From Thiotrichales bacterium (GTDB taxonomy: Bacteria; Pseudomonadota; Gammaproteobacteria; Beggiatoales; Beggiatoaceae): 64,000 nucleotides of DNA. The position numbers were made by a program, and so were the translations under genes. The notes beneath the pieces were generated by a model. The model was not told the DNA's origin and searched no databases. It saw nothing but the letters and a program-made list of their open reading frames with translations. Shown in pieces: positions 15,617-42,374 of the stretch (the first letter of the stretch is position 1; each line of letters opens with the position of its first letter). The DNA is taken from assembly GCA_016744475.1 (NCBI GenBank), contig JADGEH010000007.1:1-64000 (forward strand), given 5' to 3'.

Positions 15617-15774
15617 TATTTGCAAGGGGTATCCATCGACTGTAAAGGCGTGAATTTTGGCCTGTTTTTCCGCTTTTTATCAACAAATAGTCCGCTATTC
15701 ACCTCAAAAAACCGAAAAAACCGCCTCAAAACCACACCTTTTCGCTACGATGCCTACCTCTCGCAACCAGTCTA
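15617..15774. repeat. MITE-like element, family 1 (nearly full copy)
   Basis: About 158 bp matching the element at 4156-4318; the right end reads TCGCAACCAGTCTA and the left end has lost a few bases. Its terminal CTA is, on the minus strand, the TAG stop of the giant gene at 15772. Short frames inside it on the plus strand are repeat-derived and not genes. Confidence 0.85.

Positions 15775-42374: not shown

What the first reader, a model, noticed from the sequence alone, without database searches (positions are those of the whole stretch)
15772..42374. Two paralogous giant exoproteins share one C-terminal half and differ in their N-terminal halves
Proteins A (3368 aa) and B (4842 aa) have the same order in the C-terminal part: cadherin-like, Calx-beta-like, eight InlB-type B-repeats, 16-residue repeats, a low-complexity linker and a conserved terminal region. 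The N-terminal part is two propeller systems in A and six beta-helix units in B. This looks like a surface scaffold with exchangeable heads. An AraC-type gene lies between them.
Basis: partly seen in the sequence, partly recalled or inferred. Interest (0 to 1): 0.85.

Follow-up and report, generated by a model that had tools for sequence, protein, structure and literature searches.

The report
Shared tail carrying swappable heads
Giant sulfur bacteria (Beggiatoaceae) make very large exported proteins that share one lineage-specific C-terminal module but carry quite different N-terminal binding-type heads, much as one handle takes many tools; the module probably sorts or holds them at the cell surface or sheath, which is inferred and not yet shown.

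Summary
One correction: A also has one beta-helix/choice-of-anchor-Q unit, so the shared part starts earlier (about A 1310).

The pair belongs to something larger. The tail occurs 8 times in this genome. It occurs in 31 of 43 Beggiatoaceae genomes, up to 25 matches each, and in 0 of 365 sampled genomes of other families of the class. It lies at the C-terminus in all 23 near-complete proteins examined; all begin with a signal-peptide-like segment. Heads include NHL/RCC1 propellers, beta-helices, FG-GAP, LamG, cadherin, LRR, BspA-like and Calx-beta. Heads and tails have different histories: 13 of 17 pairs with tails at least 60% identical have unrelated heads, while the heads of B and of Thiotrichales MAG BB2 are 82% identical with 39% identical tails.

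I read it as a lineage-specific sorting/anchoring module with exchangeable heads. Modularity is shown; surface location and export route (perhaps type II) are inferred. No Pfam or NCBIfam model covers the tail.

The parts
15772..25878 (-). Protein A, 3368 aa, tail-bearing exoprotein with NHL/RCC1 head
25789..25878 (-). A signal-peptide-like segment (residues 1-30)
   Evidence: hydrophobicity and reading
23749..25785 (-). A head: two NHL-type propeller blocks
   Evidence: PF01436, PF25021; internal repeat 52%
22543..23421 (-). A head: RCC1 propeller
   Evidence: PF25390/PF00415
21067..21951 (-).
   Evidence: NF041518 E 6.7e-23; DNA matches to B
17626..19248 (-). A eight InlB-type repeats
   Evidence: PF18998, count by reading
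17257..17625 (-). A 16-residue helical repeats (ALTTAQ type)
   Evidence: predicted helices at 16-residue spacing, pLDDT about 85-92; match to PDB 9zem HeliScrew4 E 1.3e-12
16996..17256 (-). A conserved connector (LLPxxWxID...APxGT...)
   Evidence: alignment A2
16831..16995 (-). A low-complexity (GT)n linker
   Evidence: 6-bp tandem array 16868-16983
15775..16830 (-). A tail: two related beta-rich domains with repeated RRRGRARQVxxFxxxVExxPxxFC motif
27846..42374 (-). Protein B, 4842 aa, tail-bearing exoprotein with beta-helix head
42270..42374 (-). B signal-peptide-like segment (residues 1-35)
40965..42269 (-). B N-terminal glycine-rich head domain; its first 144 residues are 84% identical to those of a BB2 protein
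33204..40964 (-). B six beta-helix / choice-of-anchor-Q units with He_PIG domains
   Evidence: NF041518 x6, PF13229, PF05345
29862..31484 (-). B eight InlB-type repeats
   Evidence: PF18998
29493..29861 (-). B ALTTAQ-type helical repeats
   Evidence: PF20080
28881..29237 (-). B low-complexity linker, 33-bp repeat units
27849..28880 (-). B tail, 78% identical to A's
26146..27180 (-). AraC-type regulator between A and B; link to the system not supported

Best explanation
A and B are two of eight places in this genome that hold the tail of a Beggiatoaceae-specific family of exported modular proteins. All share a C-terminal module: 16-residue helical repeats, a conserved connector, a variable linker, and a ~300-350 residue tail of two related beta-rich domains with conserved cysteines. 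Most likely the protein enters the periplasm by the Sec signal peptide, crosses the outer membrane (type II secretion is the best candidate), and the C-terminal module serves as the common sorting/retention part that holds it at the outer surface or in the sheath, while the N-terminal heads (propellers, beta-helices, LamG, cadherin, LRR and others) face outward and bind. New surface specificities arise by putting new heads on the local tail. Shown: the shared tail, its C-terminal position, its lineage restriction, the variety of heads, the head/tail decoupling. Inferred: Sec export, outer-membrane crossing, anchoring role, binding role of the heads.
For: Eight tail matches in G000. 31/43 Beggiatoaceae genomes against 0/365 others sampled in the class; named hits all from Thiomargarita, Thioploca, Parabeggiatoa, Halobeggiatoa and 'Thiotrichales BB2'. 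Tail ends 0-19 residues from the stop in 23 of 23 proteins. Signal-peptide-like N-termini and no C-terminal transmembrane segment. Head diversity. Double dissociation of heads and tails: 13 of 17 close-tail pairs lack related heads, and similar heads sit on distant tails. Tail tree clusters by genome/genus, not by head. Conserved cysteines (C125, C155, C307, C318 of the tail alignment) suit an exported protein. Canonical GspD in 30/31 tail-bearing and 7/12 tail-less family genomes. [quoted passage not shown]
Against: No experiment. No C-terminal TM segment or LPXTG/PEP-CTERM/GlyGly-CTERM match, so the tail does not work like known processed sorting signals. At 300-550 residues the module is much longer than those signals and could equally be a functional domain. 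No partner gene was identified. The GspD association rests on a few genera and on incomplete genomes. Some relatives keep only part of the tail (e.g. 616-634 aa ORFs in two closed or near-closed 4.3-Mb genomes).
Confidence: 0.55

Rival explanations
1. The C-terminal module is a common functional domain (for example polysaccharide- or sheath-binding, or oligomerising) rather than a sorting signal; heads and tail both act outside the cell and anchoring is non-covalent adhesion.
For: Large, two beta-rich domains, a repeated basic RRRGRARQV motif, no TM or known cleavage motif. The helical repeats resemble mesothelin's (Foldseek probability 0.99, Z 5.3 over 70 residues) and match the solved HeliScrew4 protein by sequence.
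Against: The basic motif is largely lost in Halobeggiatoa/Thioploca tails, so it cannot be the universal binding site. Constant position at the very C-terminus behind so many unrelated heads is typical of sorting parts.
Confidence: 0.3
2. The pair is just a tandem gene duplication whose N-termini diverged; the common tail is ordinary shared ancestry and carries no special role.
For: A and B tails are nearest to each other in the tree (93/83) and the genes are adjacent.
Against: The heads are non-homologous folds, not diverged copies. Eight tail matches lie on seven contigs, and the same pattern repeats in other genera. B's head domain is closest to that of a BB2 protein while its tail is not closest to that protein's.
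Confidence: 0.07
3. The proteins are periplasmic or septal structural proteins of these large multicellular filaments rather than surface proteins.
For: Only Sec-type N-termini are evident; no outer-membrane secretion gene lies beside A or B.
Against: Heads are of kinds usual on cell surfaces (LamG, cadherin, FG-GAP, LRR, InlB repeats), and proteins of 1200-4800 residues suit surface fibres (general knowledge).
Confidence: 0.08

Closest known systems
C-terminal sorting-signal families (LPXTG, PEP-CTERM, GlyGly-CTERM, MYXO-CTERM; PMC3237569, PMC11980579)
   Same: Many proteins per genome, alike only at the C-terminus, with unrelated N-terminal domains; restricted to certain lineages.
   Different: Those are short regions with motif, TM helix and basic cluster, and have a dedicated enzyme. 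Here: about 300-550 residues, no TM helix, no enzyme identified.
T9SS C-terminal domain (Bacteroidota)
   Same: Folded, beta-rich C-terminal domain shared by unrelated secreted proteins with a Sec signal peptide (general knowledge).
   Different: No Por_Secre_tail-type match in A or B; different phylum; the tail is larger and duplicated. T9SS machinery was not searched for.
choice-of-anchor Q proteins (NCBIfam NF041518)
   Same: B's six units and one unit of A match it above cut-off.
   Different: That model describes a domain of the head/body; the tail here is not described by it and also carries heads without it.
ALTTAQ repeat (PF20080) / HeliScrew4 (PDB 9zem)
   Same: The 16-residue helical repeats of the module match.
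   Different: Only the repeat part; the tail beyond it has no match.
InlB B-repeat surface proteins of Firmicutes
   Same: Eight InlB-type repeats as stalk (general knowledge of the repeat; PF18998).
   Different: The stalk alone; no LPXTG, different tail; other members of this family use other stalks.

Membership tests
Lineage-specific C-terminal sorting/anchoring domain (in the sense of Haft) | Several proteins per genome homologous only at the C-terminus, with unrelated N-termini | tested here: met
   8 tail matches in G000; heads unrelated in 13 of 17 close-tail pairs
Lineage-specific C-terminal sorting/anchoring domain (in the sense of Haft) | Located at the extreme C-terminus of proteins with signal peptides | tested here: met
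   23/23 end 0-19 residues after the tail match; signal-peptide-like N-termini by hydrophobicity and reading, no dedicated predictor
Lineage-specific C-terminal sorting/anchoring domain (in the sense of Haft) | Cognate processing or sorting protein in many-to-one co-occurrence | not tested
   no partial phylogenetic profiling done; only GspD co-occurrence looked at
LPXTG/PEP-CTERM/GlyGly-CTERM/MYXO-CTERM | C-terminal motif + TM helix + basic cluster | tested here: not met
   no C-terminal hydrophobic segment; no NCBIfam CTERM match in A or B
T9SS cargo | Por_Secre_tail-type CTD | tested here: not met
   no such Pfam/NCBIfam match in A or B
Autotransporter / TPS exoprotein / RTX (T1SS) | C-terminal barrel, TPS N-domain or RTX repeats | tested here: not met
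   no such Pfam match at E 0.01 in A or B; no partner transporter adjacent
T2SS substrate | Sec signal peptide, T2SS in the genome, loss of export in a T2SS mutant | tested here: inconclusive
   signal-peptide-like N-termini, GspD present; mutant not testable
choice-of-anchor Q (NF041518) | Score above the curated cut-off | tested here: met
   A 80.7 bits, B 401.5 bits, cut-off 25
ALTTAQ repeat (PF20080) | Score above the gathering cut-off | tested here: met
   B 29.4 bits against 26.4
Mesothelin-like helical repeat | Same fold | tested here: inconclusive
   Z 5.3 over 70 residues, within the range of chance for helical repeats

The most novel reading that the evidence does not exclude
The module is a new kind of folded, non-transmembrane C-terminal sorting/retention system peculiar to giant sulfur bacteria: helical-repeat spacer plus duplicated beta-domain, recognised by an unknown lineage-specific outer-membrane or sheath partner, used to display up to dozens of exchangeable binding heads per genome.
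Probability: 0.35. Interest if true: 0.72.

Novelty: new variant of a known kind. Interest (0 to 1): 0.55.

Why it matters
Beggiatoaceae include the largest known bacteria and form mats and sheathed filaments, but in the papers searched I found no description of how their surfaces are built. A lineage-specific tail found up to 25 times per genome gives a sequence handle on their surface proteome, a way to annotate many unnamed giant proteins, and a case of modular head exchange on a constant tail that can be tested by proteomics and by a search for a partner protein. Closed genomes of the family that may belong to cultured strains carry shorter relatives.

Tried and rejected
Tail against Pfam and NCBIfam (within A and B): no model covers it. 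Tail profile against PDB sequences: nothing significant. First genome-contig scan with the single A tail: nothing, its 8-residue patterns were too strict; the alignment succeeded. Tail-only structure prediction: worse (pLDDT 60) than the whole module (pLDDT 70), and its fold search gave only low-probability hits. Mesothelin resemblance of the helical repeats: kept as a lead only. Recent gene conversion between A and B tails: rejected, silent sites saturated. Recent transfer of the B head between genera: rejected for the same reason (third-position identity 0.46). AraC as a conserved partner: an AraC-type ORF does lie about 2 kb past the B-like gene in BB2, but it is not the full-length relative. 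TAACTGA repeats known from marine Beggiatoaceae (PMC4679880): none in the window. Plasmid near-match for window 49000-60000: none. RNA families and tRNAs: none.

Full report
Observation. The two ORFs are exactly where reported. Pfam and NCBIfam give A two NHL-type propeller blocks, an RCC1 propeller and InlB-type repeats (eight by reading), and B six choice-of-anchor-Q beta-helix units with He_PIG domains and eight InlB-type repeats. In 100-residue bins the A-B identity is about 0.4-0.7 in the body and repeats and 0.66-0.85 from residue 2900 on; the last 345 residues are 78% identical. The unique end is thus the best conserved part, and the stated refutation fails. Third codon positions are near saturation (0.52), so the duplication is old.

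The tail is a family. The last 352 residues of A hit eight places in the window's own genome: both window genes, five other genes on different contigs (the one on C86 is split at its linker repeat), and one detached fragment. The fragment (C211, L030 13993-14721) is 92% identical in DNA to the last 761 bp of A and lies next to what look like transposase remnants: a dead copy. A profile of 18 tails hits 31 of 43 Beggiatoaceae genomes in 18 of 25 genera, with up to 25 matches per genome, and none of 365 sampled genomes of other families of the class. In the named GTDB collection all 19 hits belong to Thiomargarita, Thioploca, Candidatus Parabeggiatoa, Candidatus Halobeggiatoa and the MAG 'Thiotrichales bacterium BB2'.

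Anatomy of the module. Upstream of the tail, and conserved with it in all tail-bearing ORFs that are not cut or broken there, lie 16-residue repeats (A 2752-2874) and a connector with an invariant tryptophan. AlphaFold2 on the 22-sequence alignment predicts the repeats as a helical solenoid with helices every 16 residues (pLDDT about 85-92), a disordered linker, and a tail of two beta-rich parts, each with one helix (overall pLDDT 70, pTM 0.55). The two halves of the tail are related to each other by profile comparison (hhalign probability 98.7%, mostly through the shared motif RRRGRARQVxxFxPxxExxPxxFC), so the tail probably arose by internal duplication. The repeats match the solved protein HeliScrew4 (9zem, E 1.3e-12) and PF20080; the tail has no significant sequence match in the PDB and no confident fold match, though model confidence is only moderate, so a known fold is not excluded. 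The linker is the least conserved part: (GT)n in A, an 11-residue unit in B, short in others.

Heads. Among 23 near-complete tail-bearing proteins the heads include NHL+RCC1 propellers (A), beta-helices (B, L033, L057, L063), cadherin-like (L028, L041, L044), LamG (L031, L043), FG-GAP (L032), LRR+fn3 (L038, L039), DUF285/BspA-like (L042, L059) and Calx-beta (L045, L046, L056) (reading). By hydrophobicity and reading, all start with a signal-peptide-like segment (21 of 25 passed a simple threshold, the rest by eye), and none has a C-terminal transmembrane segment. In every one the tail is at the very C-terminus, 0-19 residues from the stop.

Heads and tails have different histories. Of 17 pairs with tails at least 60% identical, 13 have no extended head similarity; e.g. 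L041/L042 of Halobeggiatoa, tails 86%, heads cadherin-like and BspA-like. Conversely, B and BB2's L037 share a head domain at 82% with tails at 39%, and L042/L059 share BspA-like heads at 57% with tails at 48%. In the maximum-likelihood tree the seven near-full-length tails of this genome plus the one of its congener form one clade (100/99), BB2's three another (100/99), Thioploca's three another (97/90), whatever their heads. B's head domain is also found in ORFs without a tail match in other genera (G002 C864, G017 C135). Either heads are re-attached to the local tail, or tails are homogenised within genomes; saturation of silent sites leaves both open, and excludes recent events for A, B and the B-like head.

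Mechanism. A C-terminal region shared by proteins that are otherwise unrelated, in several copies per genome and in certain lineages only, is the pattern from which PEP-CTERM and GlyGly-CTERM were recognised as sorting signals (PMC3237569). This tail meets the distribution criterion but not the anatomy (no TM helix with basic C-terminus), and it is far longer. I therefore rate a sorting/anchoring role at 0.55 and a constant functional (adhesive or oligomerising) domain at 0.3. For the outer membrane, type II secretion is the only route for which I found any hint: canonical GspD is present in 30 of 31 tail-bearing genomes (the exception is 80% complete) and 7 of 12 tail-less ones; this rests on few genera and is weak. 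No secretion gene lies beside A or B: the neighbours are an APS-reductase-like pair, histidine kinases and a SulP-type permease.

The AraC gene. It is a bona fide AraC-type protein, but the genome has only three other, HTH-only matches, none in the tail loci examined. In BB2 an AraC-type ORF lies about 2 kb beyond the B-like gene, but the full-length relative of P0003 is elsewhere. I treat the linkage as unproven.

Assessment. The finding is real and understated: the pair is a window onto a lineage-wide family. It is a new variant of a known kind of arrangement (constant C-terminal part, exchangeable heads). What is new is the tail itself, its restriction to Beggiatoaceae in the genomes sampled, and its expansion there.

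Noticed in passing
L030 13993-14721 (G000 contig C211): Detached copy of the last 761 bp of gene A (92% DNA identity) with stops, next to what look like transposase remnants: a dead tail fragment.
   Followed up: partly
16868-16983 and 28921-29204: 6-bp (x19) and 33-bp (x8.6) tandem arrays code for the linkers of A and B; both periods are multiples of 3, so copy-number change would vary linker length without frameshift.
   Followed up: no
L037 14438-14914: AraC-type ORF about 2 kb downstream of the B-like gene in BB2, with a transposase-like ORF between; not the full-length relative of the window's AraC gene.
   Followed up: partly
17257-17625 and 29493-29861: The 16-residue helical repeats of A and B resemble the repeats of human mesothelin in fold search (Foldseek probability 0.99, Z 5.3) and match the solved HeliScrew4 protein (9zem).
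   Followed up: partly
60019-64000: Large ORF with nSTAND1 NTPase and WD40 propeller (possibly a DUF4062-like N-terminus, my reading), running off the window.
   Followed up: no
50015-52425: TdeIII-type restriction endonuclease with adjacent C5-cytosine methylase.
   Followed up: no
1067-4180: FeeM-type N-acyl amino acid synthase, B12/radical SAM DUF4070 protein and leucine carboxyl methyltransferase-like ORF in a row: possible small biosynthetic cluster.
   Followed up: no
15581-15929 and L030 16260-16952: Similar short reading-frame stretch (FFRFLSTNS..KNRKN) beside A and on contig C211: probably a repeated intergenic element.
   Followed up: no
L047, L045, L038 (upstream of the ALTTAQ repeats): In other Beggiatoaceae the InlB stalk is replaced by a different repeat of the type ...GTIxGGxLxGxI..., so the stalk is exchangeable as well.
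   Followed up: partly
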